From Clostridia bacterium (GTDB lineage Bacteria > Bacillota > Clostridia > Oscillospirales > CAG-272): a stretch of DNA of 64,000 bases. The translations under genes were made by a program, and so were the position numbers. Shown here in pieces: positions 717 to 52,845 of the stretch. Below the pieces are notes generated by a model. That model had not been told where the DNA came from, made no database searches, and saw only the letters and a program-made list of their open reading frames with translations. The DNA is taken from NCBI GenBank assembly GCA_017502875.1, contig JAFVUF010000007.1, positions 59,130-123,129 on the forward strand. Reading direction: 5' to 3'. Each line of letters begins with the position of its first letter. The first letter of the stretch is position 1.

Positions 717-782
717 GTGTTCGTATTATGCGCTGAGTACAGGCAACACGCTCGGTGTTTGATAGAGTTTGCAAGAAAAATA

Positions 783-860
783 TATAACCGCCATTGCACA
801 TTAGCTGTGGGGTGGCGGTTATAGAAAAGTTTTTGCGGAGCTTTTTTCAAAAAGCGACTG
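783..860 (+). repeat. Dispersed bipartite hairpin element, copy A (3' of the ROK gene)
   Basis: An 11-bp perfect stem (TATAACCGCCA at 783-793 with its complement at 813-823) is followed by the conserved module at 824-860. The module core is AGTTTTTGCGGAGC then a second hairpin GCTTTTT-TC-AAAAAGC and GCGACTG. The module abuts the stop codon of the ROK gene, which lies on the minus strand. Related copies are at 4722, 6098, 10954 and 13627. Confidence 0.8.
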
Positions 861-875
861 TATCTCCCTTGCGTA

Positions 876-1823
876 TCAGCGAAGCGCCGCCGCGCCGATG
901 ATACCGGCGTCGTTACCGAGGGTTGCGCTTTTAAGCTCGGTTCTGTCCTCTTCCTTGCGGCAATATACCTCTTTATCAACCAACTTTCTCAGCGGAGCGA
1001 TAAGGTTTTCCTTCTCGTTTGCTACGCCGCCTCCGAATGCTAAAATTGACGGCTGTAACATATTGATTATATTAGCGGTTCCTGTCGCAAGATAGGAAAT
1101 ATAGGTGTCTACTACCTCCTTTGCCGCCGTGTCTCCCTTTCTCATGCAGTCAAAGGCGGTACGTCCGTTGACGTTTTCAAGCTTGCCGTCCGCATATTCC
1201 CACATAGCGCTATCGCTATGCTCCTGCATTTTCTCCTTAGTCATTCTGATAAGCGCGGTTGCGGAGCTGTACGCCTCCCAGCAGCCTTTTCTGCCGCACG
1301 AGCACTGAACACCGTTGTGAACAATTACCGTATGGCCAAGCTCTCCGCCCGCAAAGGTCGAGCCGCTGTAAAGCTTGCCGTCGATGACCATTCCGCCGCC
1401 AACGCCCGTTCCAAGCGTTATCATTACGAAATCCTTTACGCCCTTTCCTGCGCCCGCAACGACCTCGCCGTATGCCGCGGCGTCCGCGTCGTTTGCTATT
1501 GAGACGTTTTTGACGGGGAAAAAGGATTTAAGCTTGTCGGCAATGGGATAATTAAGGAATGGAAGATTGTTTGCGTAGTTAACGACGCCGCTGTTACGGT
1601 CAGCTGTTCCGGGAGTCGCTATTCCGACGCTTTCTATCTTGCTTGCGCCTATGCCCTGCTCGTCGCAAAGCCTCTGACACAGAGCCGCCATATCCTTTAC
1701 AATCTCATCGGCGTCTCTGCTTGCCTTGGTCTCAACCGACGCCTTTCTTAATAAATTGTAGTCCTCATCGACAAGTCCTGCCGCAATGTTGGTTCCGCCC
1801 AGGTCTATTCCTATTGTGTACAT
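876..1823 (-). CDS. ROK-family sugar kinase (glucokinase-like)
   Basis: 315 residues, a normal length for a ROK kinase. The N-terminus carries the ATPase phosphate-1 motif GIDLGGTNIAAG, the middle has the second nucleotide motif ITLGTGVGGGMVIDG, and residues around 165-185 hold the ROK signature GELGHT...CSCGRKGCWEAY with the zinc-binding CxCGxxGC cluster. ROK kinases of this type phosphorylate glucose or related hexoses with ATP in the cytosol. A purine-rich Shine-Dalgarno precedes the start at 1823. It appears to be a single-gene unit, with repeat copy A directly behind its stop. The exact sugar cannot be read from sequence. Confidence 0.92.
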   Translation of the reverse strand: MYTIGIDLGGTNIAAGLVDEDYNLLRKASVETKASRDADEIVKDMAALCQRLCDEQGIGASKIESVGIATPGTADRNSGVVNYANNLPFLNYPIADKLKSFFPVKNVSIANDADAAAYGEVVAGAGKGVKDFVMITLGTGVGGGMVIDGKLYSGSTFAGGELGHTVIVHNGVQCSCGRKGCWEAYSSATALIRMTKEKMQEHSDSAMWEYADGKLENVNGRTAFDCMRKGDTAAKEVVDTYISYLATGTANIINMLQPSILAFGGGVANEKENLIAPLRKLVDKEVYCRKEEDRTELKSATLGNDAGIIGAAALR

Positions 1824-4601: not shown

Positions 4602-4721
4602 TTACAGTTGTTCCTTTATTGCTTTGAATGGTTGAAGCTTGAAATAGAACGGTTGTTTGCTTCTTTGTAAGTAAGAGGCTTTGGTAGAGAACAGTTACTT
4701 TTTGAAGAGCCTTCAAGGATA

Positions 4722-4800
4722 TTTCACATTCGCTCCCATTATTAAGCTGGGGCGAATGTGAAAGAAGTTTTTGCGGAGCTTTTTTCAAAAAGCGACCGTA
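4722..4800 (+). repeat. Dispersed bipartite hairpin element, copy B (3' of the dehydrogenase gene)
   Basis: A 12-bp perfect stem (TTTCACATTCGC at 4722-4733, complement at 4752-4763) precedes the conserved module at 4764-4800, which has the second hairpin GCTTTTT-TC-AAAAAGC and GCGACCG. The module stops 8 bp before the minus-strand stop codon of the dehydrogenase gene. Confidence 0.82.
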
Positions 4801-4808
4801 CCTTTCCA

Positions 4809-5975
4809 TTACTTCGAAAGAGTTTCCATAACGTAATCGGAGAATTCCTCGCAGGTAGCTCCCGTATCACGGCCTGTGATAGTGAGCTTCTTCTCGGTGA
4901 ACATACAGGTATCAAGCGCCTTTTCAAGAGCGTCAGCCTTGTCCTGATAGCCGATATGGGAGAGAAGCATAACTGCCGCGCGGAGCATAGAGCAGGGGTC
5001 GGCGTACTTGCCTCTGCCCTCGCTTATCATACGGGGCGCGGAGCCGTGGATAGCCTCGAACATGGCGTAACGGTGTCCTATGTTGGCGGAGCCCGCGGTA
5101 CCTACGCCGCCTTGGAACTCAGCCGCCTCGTCGGTGATTATATCGCCGTAGAGGTTGGGAAGCACGAACACCTTGAAAGCGGTACGGCGCTTCTTGTCGA
5201 TAAGCTTAGCGGTGGTGATGTCGATAAACCAGTCGTCAGTCTCGATTTCGGGATAGTCCTTACCTACCTTCTGGCAGATGTCAAGGAACTTACCGTCGGT
5301 AGCCTTAATAATGTTAGCCTTGGTGATGATGGAGACCTTGCCCTTCTTGTTCTTTCTCGCGTACTCGTATGCAGCCCTTGCGATACGCTCGCTTCCCTCG
5401 CTGGTGGTAACGCAGAAGTCCATGGAAAGCTCCGGGGTAACCGCGACTCCCTGAGAGCCAACCGCATAGCTTCCCTCAGTGTTTTCACGGAAGAACGTCC
5501 AATCAATGCCCTCCTCGGGAACTCTTACGGGGCGCACGTTTGCGTAGAGGTCGAGCGCCTTTCTCATAGCGACGTTAGCGCTCTCGATGTTCGGCCACGG
5601 GTCGCCCTTCTTGGGTGTGGTGGTGGGGCCTTTGAGAATGACGTGGCAAGCTTTAAGCTCCTCCATAACGTCATCGGGAATAGCCTTCATACAAGCAACT
5701 CTGTTCTCTATGGTGAGTCCGTCGATTACCTTGAACTCAACCTTGCCGCTTTTTACCTCGTCAGCGAGCATATATTCAAGAACTCTCTGCGCGGAAGCGG
5801 TGATAACGGGTCCTATTCCGTCTCCGCCGCAAACGCCGACGATTATTTTATCGAGCTTTTCAAAATCAAGGTCCTCGCGGTTAGCCGTTATACGCTCGTT
5901 TCTTTCAAGCTGAGAGCGAAGCACCGCCTCGAATTTCTCCTTTGCGGCTGCTATCTCGTTTTCGTAGTTTTTCAT
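4809..5975 (-). CDS. NAD-type isocitrate / 3-isopropylmalate dehydrogenase family enzyme
   Basis: 388 residues. Family landmarks are the N-terminal GVCGGDGIGPVITASA, the substrate loop NIESANVAMRKALDLYANVRPVR, FFRENTEGSYAVGSQG, the metal-binding aspartates in LPNLYGDIITDEAAEFQGG and the cofactor loop EAIHGSAPRMISEGRGKYADP. The substrate loop and overall length favour isocitrate dehydrogenase, giving 2-oxoglutarate for glutamate synthesis in a fermentative cell; leuC/leuD neighbours are absent, which argues against LeuB. The HGSAP loop is usual for NAD rather than NADP enzymes. Rex is the next gene on the same strand, which fits an NADH-linked context but proves nothing. Confidence 0.85.
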   Translation of the reverse strand: MKNYENEIAAAKEKFEAVLRSQLERNERITANREDLDFEKLDKIIVGVCGGDGIGPVITASAQRVLEYMLADEVKSGKVEFKVIDGLTIENRVACMKAIPDDVMEELKACHVILKGPTTTPKKGDPWPNIESANVAMRKALDLYANVRPVRVPEEGIDWTFFRENTEGSYAVGSQGVAVTPELSMDFCVTTSEGSERIARAAYEYARKNKKGKVSIITKANIIKATDGKFLDICQKVGKDYPEIETDDWFIDITTAKLIDKKRRTAFKVFVLPNLYGDIITDEAAEFQGGVGTAGSANIGHRYAMFEAIHGSAPRMISEGRGKYADPCSMLRAAVMLLSHIGYQDKADALEKALDTCMFTEKKLTITGRDTGATCEEFSDYVMETLSK

Positions 5976-6097
5976 TTTGACTTCTCCTTATGTATGTGAT
6001 TTTTATTTTGTTCAATATAAGTTTAATATCAGTTTTGGCCTTACCAAGCACTTAGACTCAAAGTGAAATGAGTTTTGGGTAAACCGCACTGAGAGTT

Positions 6098-6200
6098 TTT
6101 TACAACAATTACATACCCGACGCTTGACTTTAAAATTTATATTAATGGGTATGTGATTGTTGTAAAAGAAGCTTTTGCGCAGCTTTTCTCGAAAAGCGCG
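6098..6200 (+). repeat. Dispersed bipartite hairpin element, copy C (3' of tsaD)
   Basis: The longest plus-strand stem: 18 pairs (6101-6118 with 6147-6164, one G-T) plus three more A-T pairs outside, with a 28-nt loop. The module at 6168-6200 reads GAAGCTTTTGCGCAGC then the second hairpin GCTTTTC-TC-GAAAAGC and GCGCG. Compared with copies A and B the second hairpin has changed on both sides (TTTTT/AAAAA to TTTTC/GAAAA). It ends 7 bp before the tsaD stop. Confidence 0.85.
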
Positions 6201-6207
6201 TTCCTTT

Positions 6208-7209
6208 TTAAGCCTGAGCGTTAAGGTCAATTCCGGATATATTTCCGTCAAGATATTCGAAGTACGCCTGCGCCGCAATCATAGCGCCGTTATCTCCGCA
6301 GAGCGAAAGCGGCGGACAGCAGAAGCGGACGTTATTTTTCTTGCACATATCCTCAAGCGCCCGTCTCAGATGAGAGTTTGCCGAGACGCCGCCTGCAAGA
6401 ACGAGGGTGTTTAGCCCCGTGCGGTGAAGCGCCTCCTCCAGCTTTTTTGCTACCGACGAGGTAAACGACTCGGTAAACGAAGCCGCAACGTCCTCTTTTT
6501 TGTAGTCCAGACCCTTTTGAGAAAGACCGTTGAGGGTGTTAAGCACAGCGGTTTTGAGTCCGCTGAATGAAAAGTCCAGAGTGTCGTCTCCGATAGCGGC
6601 AGAGGGGAATTTATAAGCCTTGGCGTTACCCGCGGACGCTAATTTGTCCATTTCCGCGCCACAGGGATAATACAGTCCCATAACCCTGCCAACCTTATCA
6701 AACGCTTCTCCCGCCGCGTCGTCGCGCGTTCTGCCGATACGCTCAAAGTCGGTGAAGCTGTTCACCTTGATTATCGAGGTATGCCCTCCCGAAACCACTG
6801 CGGCAAGGAAGGGGGGCTTTAAGTCGGGGAAGCAGAAATAGTTGGCGGCTACGTGCCCCTTTATATGATTTACCGCGACCAGTGGCTTACCCGTTGAATA
6901 GGCGAGAGACTTCGCGAAGCTTACGCCCACGAGCAGCGCGCCGATAAGACCGGGAGTTGAGGTAACGCCAATAACGTCGATGTCGTTTACCGTCTTACCC
7001 GCCTTTTCGAGCGCCTCGGTAACTATCGGGCAGATAGCCTCGGAATGCGCTCTGCCGGCGATTTCGGGAACGACTCCGCCGTAGAGCCTATGTATTTCTA
7101 TCTGTGAGGCGACGGCGTTTGAAAGTATCCGCCGTTCTCCGTTTTCGAGAAACTCGCACACTGAGGCGGCGGTCTCGTCGCAGGAGCTTTCTATACCTAA
7201 AATAAGCAT
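6208..7209 (-). CDS. tsaD: tRNA N6-threonylcarbamoyladenosine transferase TsaD
   Basis: 333 residues, the normal TsaD length. The N-terminal LGIESSCDETAAS, the metal-binding HIKGHVAANYF near residue 111 and the ATP-site VSGGHTS and AGGVSANSHLR are diagnostic of the Kae1/TsaD ASKHA fold. It transfers the threonylcarbamoyl group to A37 of ANN-decoding tRNAs. It is the last gene of a minus-strand operon after rimI (16 bp gap). TsaB, often next to it in Firmicutes, is not in the window and must lie elsewhere. Confidence 0.96.
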   Translation of the reverse strand: MLILGIESSCDETAASVCEFLENGERRILSNAVASQIEIHRLYGGVVPEIAGRAHSEAICPIVTEALEKAGKTVNDIDVIGVTSTPGLIGALLVGVSFAKSLAYSTGKPLVAVNHIKGHVAANYFCFPDLKPPFLAAVVSGGHTSIIKVNSFTDFERIGRTRDDAAGEAFDKVGRVMGLYYPCGAEMDKLASAGNAKAYKFPSAAIGDDTLDFSFSGLKTAVLNTLNGLSQKGLDYKKEDVAASFTESFTSSVAKKLEEALHRTGLNTLVLAGGVSANSHLRRALEDMCKKNNVRFCCPPLSLCGDNGAMIAAQAYFEYLDGNISGIDLNAQA

Positions 7210-10491: not shown

Positions 10492-10807
10492 GCAAGGCAA
10501 GATATAGAATAAGGTCATACCGGCCGGGGAGCTAGCGGTGCCCTGTAACCTACAATCCGCTATAGTAGGGGTGGTTTCCGATCCGAGGGCCAATCGTGTG
10601 CGGTCTGCGCCGTTGGGGATCGTGATGACGGATGGGTCTTGTGCAATCAATGGCCTCGAACCATGTCAGGCGGGCGCACCGAGCAGCATTAAGGGGTATG
10701 TTTGATGTGCCACGAGGGTGCCTGTCCCGAGCGAGAGCCGCGGTTAACGCGTATTCGGTTGTGTTCAGAGTGAGGTGTATGACCGTATTGTGTATCTTGC
10801 CTTCTTG
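10492..10807 (+). ncRNA. ffs: Signal recognition particle RNA, large (Alu-containing) type
   Basis: The 5' Alu domain shows GCCGGGGAGCTAGCGGTGCC then CTGTAACC and GCTATAGTAGGGGTG. The S domain holds the SRP54-binding helix 8 landmarks CATGTCAGG and GAGCAGCATTAAGG. The ends pair: CAAGGCAAGATATA near the 5' end with TATCTTGCCTT at 10793-10803, and AAGGTCATAC with GTATGACC. Length is about 315 nt, slightly longer than the Bacillus RNA (~270 nt). It scaffolds Ffh for co-translational targeting to the membrane. The position directly upstream of dnaX is the conserved Firmicutes arrangement. Confidence 0.92.
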
Positions 10808-10874: not shown

Positions 10875-10990
10875 CGCTTTGCTAAAATAATCACAAAGCG
10901 GCTGTCCTGCACCAGAGTTTTGCGTCTTTGTGTTGCAAAGCGGCAATTATACAGAAGCTTTTGCGGAGCTTTTCTCGAAAAGCGACCGTT
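10875..10990 (+). repeat. Dispersed bipartite element, copy D (5' of dnaX)
   Basis: The conserved module is at 10954-10990 (GAAGCTTTTGCGGAGC, second hairpin GCTTTTC-TC-GAAAAGC, GCGACCG). Unlike the other copies no long stem abuts it; only short alternatives exist, such as CGCTTTG (10875-10881) with CAAAGCG at 10894-10900 or at 10936-10942. It is also the only copy on the 5' side of its neighbouring gene: the module ends 18 bp before the dnaX start and contributes to its leader. Confidence 0.72.
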
Positions 10991-11008
10991 ATTTTCACAG
11001 GAGGTAAT

Positions 11009-13015: not shown

Positions 13016-13615
13016 ATGAGTGAATTTATACCGCCGCTTGAAATGATGGTGGAGGCGTTCCGCCGTCTGCCCGGAGTTGGCAGAAAAAGCGCCGAGCGCA
13101 TGGCGTTTGGAGTGCTTGATATGACGCCTGAGCAGGTTGAGAGCTTCGTTTCCGCGGTTGCGGGCGCGAGGAGCTCTATTCACGCCTGTAAGGAATGCGG
13201 AAATATTACCGCTTCCGAGCTTTGTCCGATATGCTCTGACGAGGGGCGGGACAGAACGATAATCTGCGTGGTTGAGGACAGCAAGGCGGTCATATCGTTT
13301 GAGAAGATAAAGGAATATAACGGAATTTATCACGTTCTCGGAGGAGTTATCTCACCCAGAAGCGGCAAGGCGCCGCAGGACCTCAATCTCGCCTCGCTGT
13401 CCGAGCGCATAAGAGAAAACGGCGCTACCGAGGTAATGATAGCGACCAACGCCACCGTTGAGGGTGAAACGACGGCTATGTATATAAGCAGACTTATCAA
13501 GCCTACGGGCGTTAAGATAACCCGTCTTGCCTACGGAATACCCGTCGGCGCTGATATTGAGTATGCTGATAAGCTGACCTTGCTCCGAGCAATCGAGGGA
13601 AGACGGGAGTTTTGA
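13016..13615 (+). CDS. recR: Recombination mediator RecR
   Basis: 199 residues, standard length. An N-terminal helix-hairpin-helix (LPGVGRKSAERMAF), a zinc finger (CKECGNIT...CPIC) and a Toprim domain (ICVVEDSKAVISFE...YHVLGGVISPRSG) are all visible. RecR with RecO/RecF loads RecA on gapped DNA. It starts 3 bp after ybaB. The stop codon is followed within 12 bp by repeat copy E. Confidence 0.96.
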   Translation: MSEFIPPLEMMVEAFRRLPGVGRKSAERMAFGVLDMTPEQVESFVSAVAGARSSIHACKECGNITASELCPICSDEGRDRTIICVVEDSKAVISFEKIKEYNGIYHVLGGVISPRSGKAPQDLNLASLSERIRENGATEVMIATNATVEGETTAMYISRLIKPTGVKITRLAYGIPVGADIEYADKLTLLRAIEGRREF

Positions 13616-13626
13616 GCAAGTGGAGT

Positions 13627-13734
13627 ACGCGCTTTCTTGGAAGAAAGCTGCGCAAAGAACTCTCTTACAACGATGCCATATGCTTTGGAGTAATTTTTAA
13701 AACGATTTATTTGATATGGCATCGTTGCAAGAGA
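13627..13734 (-). repeat. Dispersed bipartite hairpin element, copy E (3' of recR)
   Basis: Same design on the opposite strand. The module occupies 13627-13660; its second hairpin is GCTTTCTT-CC-AAGAAAGC, with both strands changed relative to copies A-D. A 21-position stem follows (13661-13681 with 13714-13734, 20 of 21 paired, arms around CAACGATGCCATAT). The module again faces the gene end and the long hairpin points away. Confidence 0.82.
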
Positions 13735-13831
13735 TTACCTCGTATTTTCTTCAGGAACGTGCATGTCGCTTGTTCACATCTCTAATATGACATTAAAAAA
13801 CCGAAAGATTTAACCCACAAAGGCGAAAACA

Positions 13832-22668: not shown

Positions 22669-22703
22669 TAAAGTGCCCCGCCGCGCCGTGTACGAAAATA
22701 ATG

Positions 22704-22883
22704 AAAACCCTGCTCACGCAAGGCGGTGTCCTGTCGGGTATTTTGGGCTACCAACGTCTTTTAGCTCCGCGCTAACGGGGGAGTAAAAGGAGGTCTGCAC
22801 TCCTATACGCGAACCCGGACTCCATTAATTTGTTGTAGGTTCCACTTGAAATTCGTAAGCACGCACGCCGCAGGAGGGTTTTT
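22704..22883 (+). ncRNA. Probable 6S RNA (strand uncertain)
   Basis: A 180-nt unit closed by its ends: AAAACCCT (22704-22711) pairs with AGGGTTTT (22875-22882). Further paired segments lie inside (GGCGGTGT with ACGCACGCC, then CTACCAACG with TTGTTGTAG). Between them are two facing unpaired stretches, one containing GGGTATTTTGGG, the other GTTCCACTTGAAATTCG. A long rod with a central bubble and a length near 180 nt is the 6S architecture that traps sigma-A RNA polymerase. GGCGGTGT resembles the conserved 5' part of many 6S RNAs. An AT-rich -10-like stretch at 22692-22702 favours the plus strand, but the near-symmetric structure does not exclude the minus strand. Confidence 0.55.
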
Positions 22884-52424: not shown

Positions 52425-52500
52425 GGAAGCATAGCTCAGCTGGGAGAGCACTTGCCTTACAAGCAAGGGGTCACAGGTTCGAGCCCTGTTGTTTCCACCA
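52425..52500 (+). tRNA. tRNA-Val (anticodon TAC)
   Basis: 76 nt with encoded CCA. The acceptor GGAAGCA pairs with TGTTTCC; the D arm has TAGCTCAGCTGGGAGAGC; the anticodon stem CTTGC/GCAAG holds loop CTTACAA, so TAC; the T arm has GGTTCGAGCC. Confidence 0.96.
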
Positions 52501-52504
52501 AAAT

Positions 52505-52581
52505 GGCCCGGTAGTTCAGTTGGTTAGAACGCTAGCCTGTCACGCTAGAGGTCGAGGGTTCGAGTCCCTTCCGGGTCGCCA
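52505..52581 (+). tRNA. tRNA-Asp (anticodon GTC)
   Basis: 77 nt with encoded CCA. Acceptor GGCCCGG/CCGGGTC, discriminator G as expected for Asp, anticodon loop CTGTCAC giving GTC, T arm GGTTCGAGTCC. Confidence 0.96.
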
Positions 52582-52690
52582 ATACCAGACCCCTGGTACT
52601 GAAAGTAAATTGTTTGAGCAGCGTCGAGCAGGATTGCGTCGATAGTAAATTGCGAAGCGATTTACGCAACAATCCCGTAAGGATTGTTAC
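52582..52690. other. Hairpin-rich spacer inside the tRNA cluster
   Basis: The 109-bp gap holds three small hairpins: TACCAG-ACC-CCTGGTA near 52585, GTAAATTGC-GAA-GCGATTTAC near 52650, and CAATCC-CGTAA-GGATTG near 52670. The neighbouring tRNA spacers are only 3-4 bp, so this is an insertion in the cluster and possibly RNase processing signals. Confidence 0.5.
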
Positions 52691-52766
52691 GCCTCTGTAG
52701 CTCAGTTGGTAGAGCAGGGGACTGAAAATCCCCGTGTCGTTGGTTCAATTCCGACCGGAGGCACCA
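52691..52766 (+). tRNA. tRNA-Phe (anticodon GAA)
   Basis: 76 nt with encoded CCA. Acceptor GCCTCTG/CGGAGGC, anticodon stem GGGGA/TCCCC with loop CTGAAAA giving GAA, T arm GGTTCAATTCC. Confidence 0.96.
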
Positions 52767-52769
52767 TAT

Positions 52770-52845
52770 GCGGATTTAGCTCATTTGGTAGAGCGCGACC
52801 TTGCCAAGGTCGAGGTGGCGGGTTCGAGCCCCGTAATCCGCTCCA
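52770..52845 (+). tRNA. tRNA-Gly (anticodon GCC)
   Basis: 76 nt with encoded CCA. Acceptor GCGGATT/AATCCGC, anticodon stem CGACC/GGTCG with loop TTGCCAA giving GCC, T arm GGTTCGAGCC. Confidence 0.96.

What the first reader, a model, noticed from the sequence alone, without database searches (positions are those of the whole stretch)
6098..6200. Dispersed bipartite element: conserved module plus a long hairpin of unrelated sequence in each copy
Five intergenic sites (783-860, 4722-4800, 6098-6200, 10954-10990, 13627-13734) share a ~35-bp module, consensus GAAG-Y-TTTTGCG-S-AGC followed by a second hairpin. In four copies the module is preceded by a long stem of 11, 12, 21 and 21 positions whose arm sequences differ completely (TATAACCGCCA, TTTCACATTCGC, TACAACAATTACATACCC, CAACGATGCCATAT core), yet are perfect or nearly perfect complements. 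A normal MITE or REP element keeps its stem sequence; here the flank is conserved and the stem is free. This implies selection or a copying process that renews complementarity, for example template switching or capture of local sequence. I know of no named element with this design.
Basis: seen in the sequence. Interest (0 to 1): 0.82.

Follow-up and report, generated by a model that had tools for sequence, protein, structure and literature searches.

The report
Triple-helix RNA-like repeat at gene ends
These five spots are copies of a roughly 130-letter repeat whose one strand appears to fold into a long hairpin plus a small three-stranded helix; the letters drift while the fold is kept, and the copies sit right against gene ends, which points to a structured element, probably acting as RNA, that I did not find described.

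Summary
A covariance model built from 21 copies in a congener (SIG673/G005) finds all five window sites (E 2e-6 to 3e-15), 61 rows in this genome and 142 in G005 (strands counted apart). The "module" reads as a pyrimidine-motif intrastrand triplex: its first pyrimidine run matches the purine arm of the following hairpin, parallel, in letters and length, exactly in 62 of 65 parsed copies (3 parse offsets; 21 of 86 unparsed); of 45 informative copies 42 are parallel, none antiparallel. Stems change by compensation; G.T outnumbers A.C 94 to 11, so one strand, as RNA or single-stranded DNA, is the selected fold. This argues against template switching or capture. In two species the element's 3' end abuts a gene edge (median 8 nt; 65 of 83 at a stop codon, antisense to that gene). 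Transcription, a physical triplex and function are untested; an RNA boundary element is my best guess. Closest known kind: bacterial intrastrand-triplex repeats (BoxC/PIT), whose E. coli family is the opposite motif.

The parts
724..878 (+). element copy 1 (whole R1 match); 3' end abuts the stop of the minus-strand gene 876-1823
   Evidence: R1 E 1.5e-10; gene ORF; stop 20 nt from P4
735..866 (+). copy 1 putative outer helix P1: GAGTACAG 735-742 with CTGTA-T-CTC 858-866; P2 hairpin AACAC 745-749 / GTGTT 755-759
   Evidence: read from sequence; P1 is the weakest helix and is not in the single-sequence MFE
783..823 (+). copy 1 free stem P3, arms 783-793 and 813-823
830..855 (+). copy 1 triplex module: third strand TTTTT 830-834, Y arm 842-846, loop TC, R arm AAAAA 849-853, closing GC 854-855
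4676..4812 (+). element copy 2; abuts the stop of the minus-strand gene 4809-5975
   Evidence: R1 E 3.4e-15
4722..4763 (+). copy 2 free stem P3, arms 4722-4733 and 4752-4763
4768..4793 (+). copy 2 triplex module: third TTTTT 4768-4772, Y arm 4780-4784, R arm AAAAA 4787-4791
6068..6199 (+). element copy 3; abuts the stop of the minus-strand gene 6208-7209
   Evidence: R1 E 1.9e-9, model 20-116
6098..6167 (+). copy 3 free stem P3, arms 6098-6118 and 6147-6167 (one T.G)
6172..6197 (+). copy 3 triplex module: third CTTTT 6172-6176, Y arm TTTTC 6184-6188, R arm GAAAA 6191-6195
10907..11002 (+). element copy 4, in the 5' leader of dnaX (ATG 11009); no strong P3
   Evidence: R1 E 2.2e-6; dnaX by NCBIfam; fold z -0.34
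10958..10983 (+). copy 4 triplex module: third CTTTT 10958-10962, Y arm 10970-10974, R arm GAAAA 10977-10981
13612..13779 (-). element copy 5, minus strand; abuts the stop of the plus-strand gene 13016-13615
   Evidence: R1 E 4.8e-11
13661..13734 (-). copy 5 free stem P3, arms 13714-13734 and 13661-13681
13631..13659 (-). copy 5 triplex module read on minus: third TTCTTT 13659-13654, Y arm 13646-13641, loop CC, R arm AAGAAA 13638-13633

Best explanation
What it is: a dispersed ~130-nt structured element of an Oscillospiraceae genus (family name from the SIG673 record titles). One strand folds into an outer helix (P1, weakest), a small hairpin (P2), a long hairpin of free sequence (P3, 11-23 bp) and, directly after it, a short pyrimidine-motif triple helix: a 4-7 nt pyrimidine strand lies in the major groove of the next hairpin (P4), parallel to its purine arm. 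Selection acts on the fold, so stems and triads drift by compensatory change. How it works (inferred): the strand is transcribed, by readthrough, by divergent or antisense transcription towards the neighbouring gene, or as 5' leader where it precedes a start codon, and the long hairpin plus triplex makes a compact boundary in that RNA, resisting nucleases or RNA polymerase at the gene edge. Shown by sequence: copies, compensation, strand bias, three-arm covariation, polar placement in two species. Inferred: transcription, a physical triplex, boundary function (function alone about 0.35).
For: Copies: R1. Compensation: 93.7% of cells paired vs shuffles 86.3 and slid 49-54%; 16 pairs with both-side change (shuffled 9.9); covariation 0.285 vs 0.139. 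Strand: G.T 38 vs A.C 11 in G000 and 56 vs 0 in G005 (63 copies with a clear P3), binomial P 1.4e-4 for G000 alone; earlier set 75 vs 6; sense RNA more stable in 27 of 30 and 44 of 56. Triplex: 62 of 65 exact parallel matches, shuffles mean 15.5, max 28; 42 of 45 informative parallel, 0 antiparallel. In 394 genomes of the order, 31 of 31 distinct perfect-hairpin rows keep the match, 1 of 28 rows without a hairpin does (25 of the 31 are T5). Placement: 3'-side gap median 8 nt, <=40 in 75 of 83; 5'-side median 313, <=40 in 2 of 83; 65 of 83 at a stop. G000 copies look old (median best whole-element identity 0.41, from local alignments) yet still pair.
Against: No transcript or probing data. Most copies are antisense to the gene they abut, so an unproven antisense transcript is needed. 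Left gaps show little promoter excess (8 of 71 on the element's strand, 13 of 71 on the other, 5 of 71 shuffled). P1 is only ~80% paired with weak strand bias (G.T 129, A.C 92). One measure, further pair types, hardly exceeds shuffles (36 vs 32.3; 32 of 500 reach it). 10 stems from other genera show no bias (6 vs 8) and 50 modules elsewhere no tight placement (3'-side median 91.5, <=50 in 10 of 50). 21 of 86 copies do not parse as triplex. Orthologous ends share the element no more than chance (stops 5 both, 5, 9, 12, P 0.50; starts 1, 5, 2, 27, P 0.44).
Confidence: 0.6

Rival explanations
1. The fold works as single-stranded DNA: a strand-specific recombination or transposition site, in the manner of integron attC sites (folded bottom strand, free stem sequence, at gene 3' ends) or REP/IS200-type hairpins.
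For: Dispersed, turning over between species; fold on one strand, antisense to the gene at most stops, as attC bottom strands are (recalled); the strand is also more stable with DNA parameters in 77 of 86; younger-looking copies in G005 (best-pair identity up to 0.91).
Against: No Y1 transposase in 7 genus genomes; no integron integrase over cut-off in 7; no reverse transcriptase in G000 or G005, one congener (G003) has it. G005 is only 79% complete, so absence there is not certain. Diverged G000 copies keep pairing, which a site idle after insertion would not.
Confidence: 0.2
2. The working strand is the mRNA strand: a 3' UTR stabiliser or bidirectional terminator placed after the stop codon, as REP elements can be.
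For: 65 of 83 copies sit directly after a stop codon; P1 reads as A-tract, stem, U-tract in both directions (my reading); the antisense folds are also stable (-44.4 and -49.7 kcal/mol on average).
Against: G.T on the other strand means A.C mismatches in the mRNA; the mRNA strand would hold a purine-motif triplex, which RNA does not form (Holder 2015). The terminator scan lists none of the five sites, but it only allows loops of 3-8 and so cannot see most of these P3 hairpins.
Confidence: 0.15
3. Complementarity is renewed by copying (template switching in hairpins) or by capture of local sequence, without selection for the fold.
For: Perfect or near-perfect stems of unlike sequence; both-side changes.
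Against: G.T/A.C asymmetry; parallel third-strand match, which antiparallel template switching cannot make; 21 of 26 stem cores occur nowhere else in the G000 stretches examined.
Confidence: 0.04
4. A decaying MITE family whose stems merely diverged.
For: Multi-copy, intergenic, about half of 26 G000 stems recognisably related.
Against: Pairing and triads are kept at a median best whole-element identity of 0.41.
Confidence: 0.04

Closest known systems
Intrastrand triplex motifs of bacteria (BoxC / PIT / TMECO; ITxF database, PMC4666352, half of the text read)
   Same: Intergenic, multi-copy, three-arm single-strand fold; the module's layout is the paper's class IV (5' Hoogsteen, Y, R 3').
   Different: E. 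[quoted passage not shown] ours is a short A/T-rich pyrimidine motif whose triads change in concert, inside a larger fold, flush with gene ends. 38 of 65 parsed copies are below ITxF's minimum stem of 6.
MALAT1 / ENE RNA triple helices (listing and abstract start only; details recalled)
   Same: Order U-rich strand, U-rich strand, A-rich strand; U.A-U with C+.G-C.
   Different: Eukaryotic, RNA 3' ends or poly(A); no sequence relation claimed.
REP/REPIN and BIME repeats (PMC3116915 listing only; details recalled)
   Same: Dispersed hairpins near gene 3' ends.
   Different: Conserved stem sequence and RAYT transposase; here changing stems and no Y1 transposase found in 7 genus genomes.
Integron attC sites (PMC2727003 and others, abstract starts only; details partly recalled)
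   Same: Structure kept with free stem sequence, one strand only, at gene 3' ends antisense to the gene.
   Different: No integron integrase over cut-off in 7 genomes; conserved unpaired module and triplex; also 5' of some genes.

Membership tests
Class IV intrastrand triplex motif (ITxF definition) | 5' third strand, Y arm, R arm order with T.A-T / C.G-C triads | tested here: met
   62 of 65 parsed copies exact, other 3 off by one closing pair in my parse, 21 of 86 unparsed; 31 of 31 perfect-hairpin rows in the order
Class IV intrastrand triplex motif (ITxF definition) | stem 6-15 nt, loops 1-6 nt | tested here: not met
   38 of 65 copies have arms of 4-5 nt; for TTCTTT arms the first loop GCGCAGC is 7 nt unless one mismatch is allowed. 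ITxF itself was not run
Class IV intrastrand triplex motif (ITxF definition) | physical triplex formation | not testable with these tools
   needs CD, NMR or probing
BoxC/PIT/TMECO | consensus CCCTCNCCCN3-6GGGNGAGGGN3GGGNGAGGG, class II | tested here: not met
   copies are A/T-rich pyrimidine motif by direct reading; consensus from PMC4666352
REP/RAYT | Y1 transposase in the genome | tested here: not met
   0 of 7 genus genomes; control rings in 5 of 14
REP/RAYT | conserved stem with GTAG/GGAG 5' foot (recalled) | tested here: not met
   by reading only: stem letters change; GAAG lies at the 3' foot
Integron attC | IntI integrase | tested here: not met
   0 of 7 genomes over the TIGR02249 cut-off; weak hits in 7 of 7 and also in 14 of 14 controls
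Integron attC | R'/R'' core boxes (recalled) | not tested
   -
Rfam families | match at gathering score | tested here: not met
   no Rfam hit at the five window sites; in 4 SIG673 loci only three hits below gathering score, E 0.086-0.62, which I take as chance
Intrinsic terminator | G+C stem followed by a T run | tested here: inconclusive
   none of the five sites listed, but the scan allows loops of 3-8 only
MITE | terminal inverted repeats, target duplication, parent transposase | not tested
   no clean empty site was resolved; orthologous ends without the module seen

The most novel reading that the evidence does not exclude
A new class of multi-copy bacterial RNA element with a genuine, covarying intramolecular triple helix next to a sequence-free hairpin, carried at dozens to perhaps a hundred gene edges per genome and acting as a general boundary against transcripts running into genes from their ends; the same module in distant bacteria would make it widespread.
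Probability: 0.3. Interest if true: 0.88.

Novelty: new variant of a known kind. Interest (0 to 1): 0.74.

Why it matters
Base-triple covariation across natural copies would be unusual evidence for a nucleic acid triple helix (my judgement; not surveyed). Here several triad types, 4-7 long, give a natural mutational experiment in two species and in a few rows of other genera, so triplex formation, and RNA against DNA, become directly testable. The polar placement at stop codons hints at a general device at gene ends in this genus.

Tried and rejected
Capture or renewal by copying: rejected on wobble asymmetry and the parallel third strand. Y1 transposase, integron integrase, reverse transcriptase as movers: not found in G000 or G005. 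Own promoter in the left gap: little excess over shuffles. Vertical sharing of copies: no excess at orthologous ends; the G005 stretches were chosen for hits, so their base rate is high. First triplex parse used a faulty pattern; one search replaces it; of its 21 unparsed copies 15 have no third strand by my rule and 6 no hairpin. RNAfold puts the third strand into ordinary pairs in some window copies; I did not test that pairing systematically. P1 searched copy by copy against shuffles is rarely significant alone. Literature: searches showed no description of this element; subscription journals are mostly not held. PMC4666352 was read in parts 1-5 of 10 plus found passages; all other papers were seen only in listings with abstract starts. 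Gene calls on the loci are my own codon-usage script, not a standard annotator; one search was a cruder version, not used for counts. On re-checking I changed the observation verdict to partly confirmed (two window stems are related), the terminator test to inconclusive, and left the odds as they were.

Full report
What is there. The five sites share the module GAAG-Y-TTTTGCG-S-AGC plus a hairpin. The fifth lies on the minus strand. In the window's own genome (G000, a 1.65 Mb MAG) the module pattern gives 27 matches at up to 3 mismatches: 14 exact, 2 with one mismatch, and 11 with three, of which 7 belong to another repeat (TTTTGCCAAGC...) and 4 are a TCTTT-type copy of this one. An exact scan of genome contigs found 84 stretches, nearly all in MAGs titled Oscillospiraceae or Clostridia, and three in distant records (Desulfoluna limicola, an Aminicenantes MAG, a Rhodovastum MAG). 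Two of the four window stems (6098, 13627) are related to each other (13 of 19 positions).

The element is larger. RNAalifold finds 39 pairs, 17 with both-side changes. I fixed a structure P1 (outer), P2, P3 (free stem), P4 (module hairpin) on 21 copies, leaving out the four with the GCGCAG linker, and counted it: 93.7% of cells paired against 86.3% in shuffles and 49-54% when slid; covariation score 0.285 against 0.139. P3 carries most of it (10 of 18 pairs with both-side change, 98.9% paired); P1 is weaker (81%); P4 does not vary within that set, so there it says nothing.

Copy number. Model R1 lists 142 rows in G005, 61 in G000, 18, 14, 4, 3 and 0 in the other five congeners (both strands of one place may count, and at most 150 candidates per genome were scored). 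In 461 kb of stretches chosen for hits, 159 rows, of which the best 150 were aligned, reduce to 86 places, 30 of them G000; the 9 lowest rows were not counted. With stricter filters, 26 of 146 family genomes have a hit at E <= 1e-5, mostly one to three; part of that score is the shared module itself.

The module is a triplex word. Within P4 the arms are pyrimidine and purine. The run before it equals the purine arm's parallel (Hoogsteen) complement: TTTT, TTTTT, CTTTT, TCTTT and TTCTTT, exact in 62 of 65 parsed copies; TTCTTTT and TTTCTTT account for the other 3, where my parse took one closing pair too many. Shuffling purine arms among copies gives 15.5 on average and 28 at most. Of 45 copies whose arm reads differently backwards, 42 are parallel and none antiparallel. 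Both genomes show it: G000 28 parsed of 30, G005 37 of 56. Among the listed rows from 394 genomes of the order (only the first places of each genome are listed), 31 of 31 distinct perfect-hairpin rows keep the match (25 are T5, 2 are TTCTT; these 27 cannot tell direction) and 1 of 28 rows without a hairpin does. Class IV words of 6 or more: 69 in 461 kb, 0 in Markov controls; 42 of the 69 lie outside R1 places, mostly in other repeats. A mirror match cannot arise from antiparallel copying.

Which strand. Stem pairs that are not Watson-Crick are G.T 38 against A.C 11 in G000 and 56 against 0 in G005 (63 of 86 copies with a clear P3); over model-fitted P3 of all 86, 138 against 12. The strand carrying the pyrimidine third strand is therefore the one whose folding is selected, as RNA or single-stranded DNA. 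That strand also gives the RNA-compatible triplex (pyrimidine motif; the purine motif does not form in RNA, PMC4666352). Against: 10 stems from other genera show 6 against 8, and P1 only 129 against 92.

Where it sits. None of 86 copies overlaps a called gene by more than 60 nt. Of 83 with both neighbours called, the 3'-side gap has median 8 nt (75 within 40) and the 5'-side gap 313 (2 within 40); 65 abut a stop codon, antisense to that gene, and 18 a start. From P4 to the stop codon 28 of 61 parsed distances are 9-15 nt (four negative values put the called stop inside P4). In 50 modules of other genera no such tight placement is seen. At ends of orthologous genes G000 and G005 share the element no more than chance, and where both have one, as at a 90%-identical protein, stem and triad types differ. 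G000 copies are diverged (median best whole-element identity 0.41), G005 copies closer to each other (0.84). Copy 4 precedes dnaX.

Reading. Selection for a single-strand fold explains changing stems, wobble bias, exact triads and diverged but intact copies. I favour RNA because of the wobble bias and the RNA-compatible motif, and a boundary role because of the polar placement at gene edges; no call shows transcription. An attC-like single-stranded DNA role is the main rival; its enzymes were not found.

Known kinds. Holder et al. (PMC4666352, parts 1-5 of 10 and passages read) describe bacterial intrastrand triplex repeats in four classes; the E. coli family they study is class II. Our module has class IV layout, but 38 of 65 parsed copies are below their minimum stem. 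'Covari' and 'compensatory' do not occur in that paper's main text. I found no description of this element in nine searches of the open library. I file it as a new variant of the intrastrand-triplex kind, embedded in a larger fold.

Noticed in passing
L211-L222 (G005), e.g. L212:13148: A second, longer triplex-type repeat in the same intergenic regions: a pyrimidine/purine hairpin followed by a mirror purine strand of about 17 nt (by reading), beside several other structured repeats.
   Followed up: partly
L212:6899, L215:1930, L211:3248 and others: A subfamily with an extra GCC-GAA-GGC hairpin in the linker and a degraded second hairpin.
   Followed up: no
L098 (Desulfoluna limicola), L123 (Aminicenantes MAG), L112 (Rhodovastum MAG): The T5 module with varied linkers is dispersed in distant bacteria: 41, 86 and 22 exact pattern hits in their genomes, 0 in the reversed control.
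   Followed up: partly
L224-L228 (G000), e.g. L228:9539-9880: Elements sometimes stand in divergent pairs about 200 nt apart, one at each end of an intergenic region.
   Followed up: no
window 10515-10782, 22671-22879, 52425-52842: SRP RNA directly upstream of dnaX, a 6S RNA hit just over its gathering score, and a tRNA cluster.
   Followed up: no
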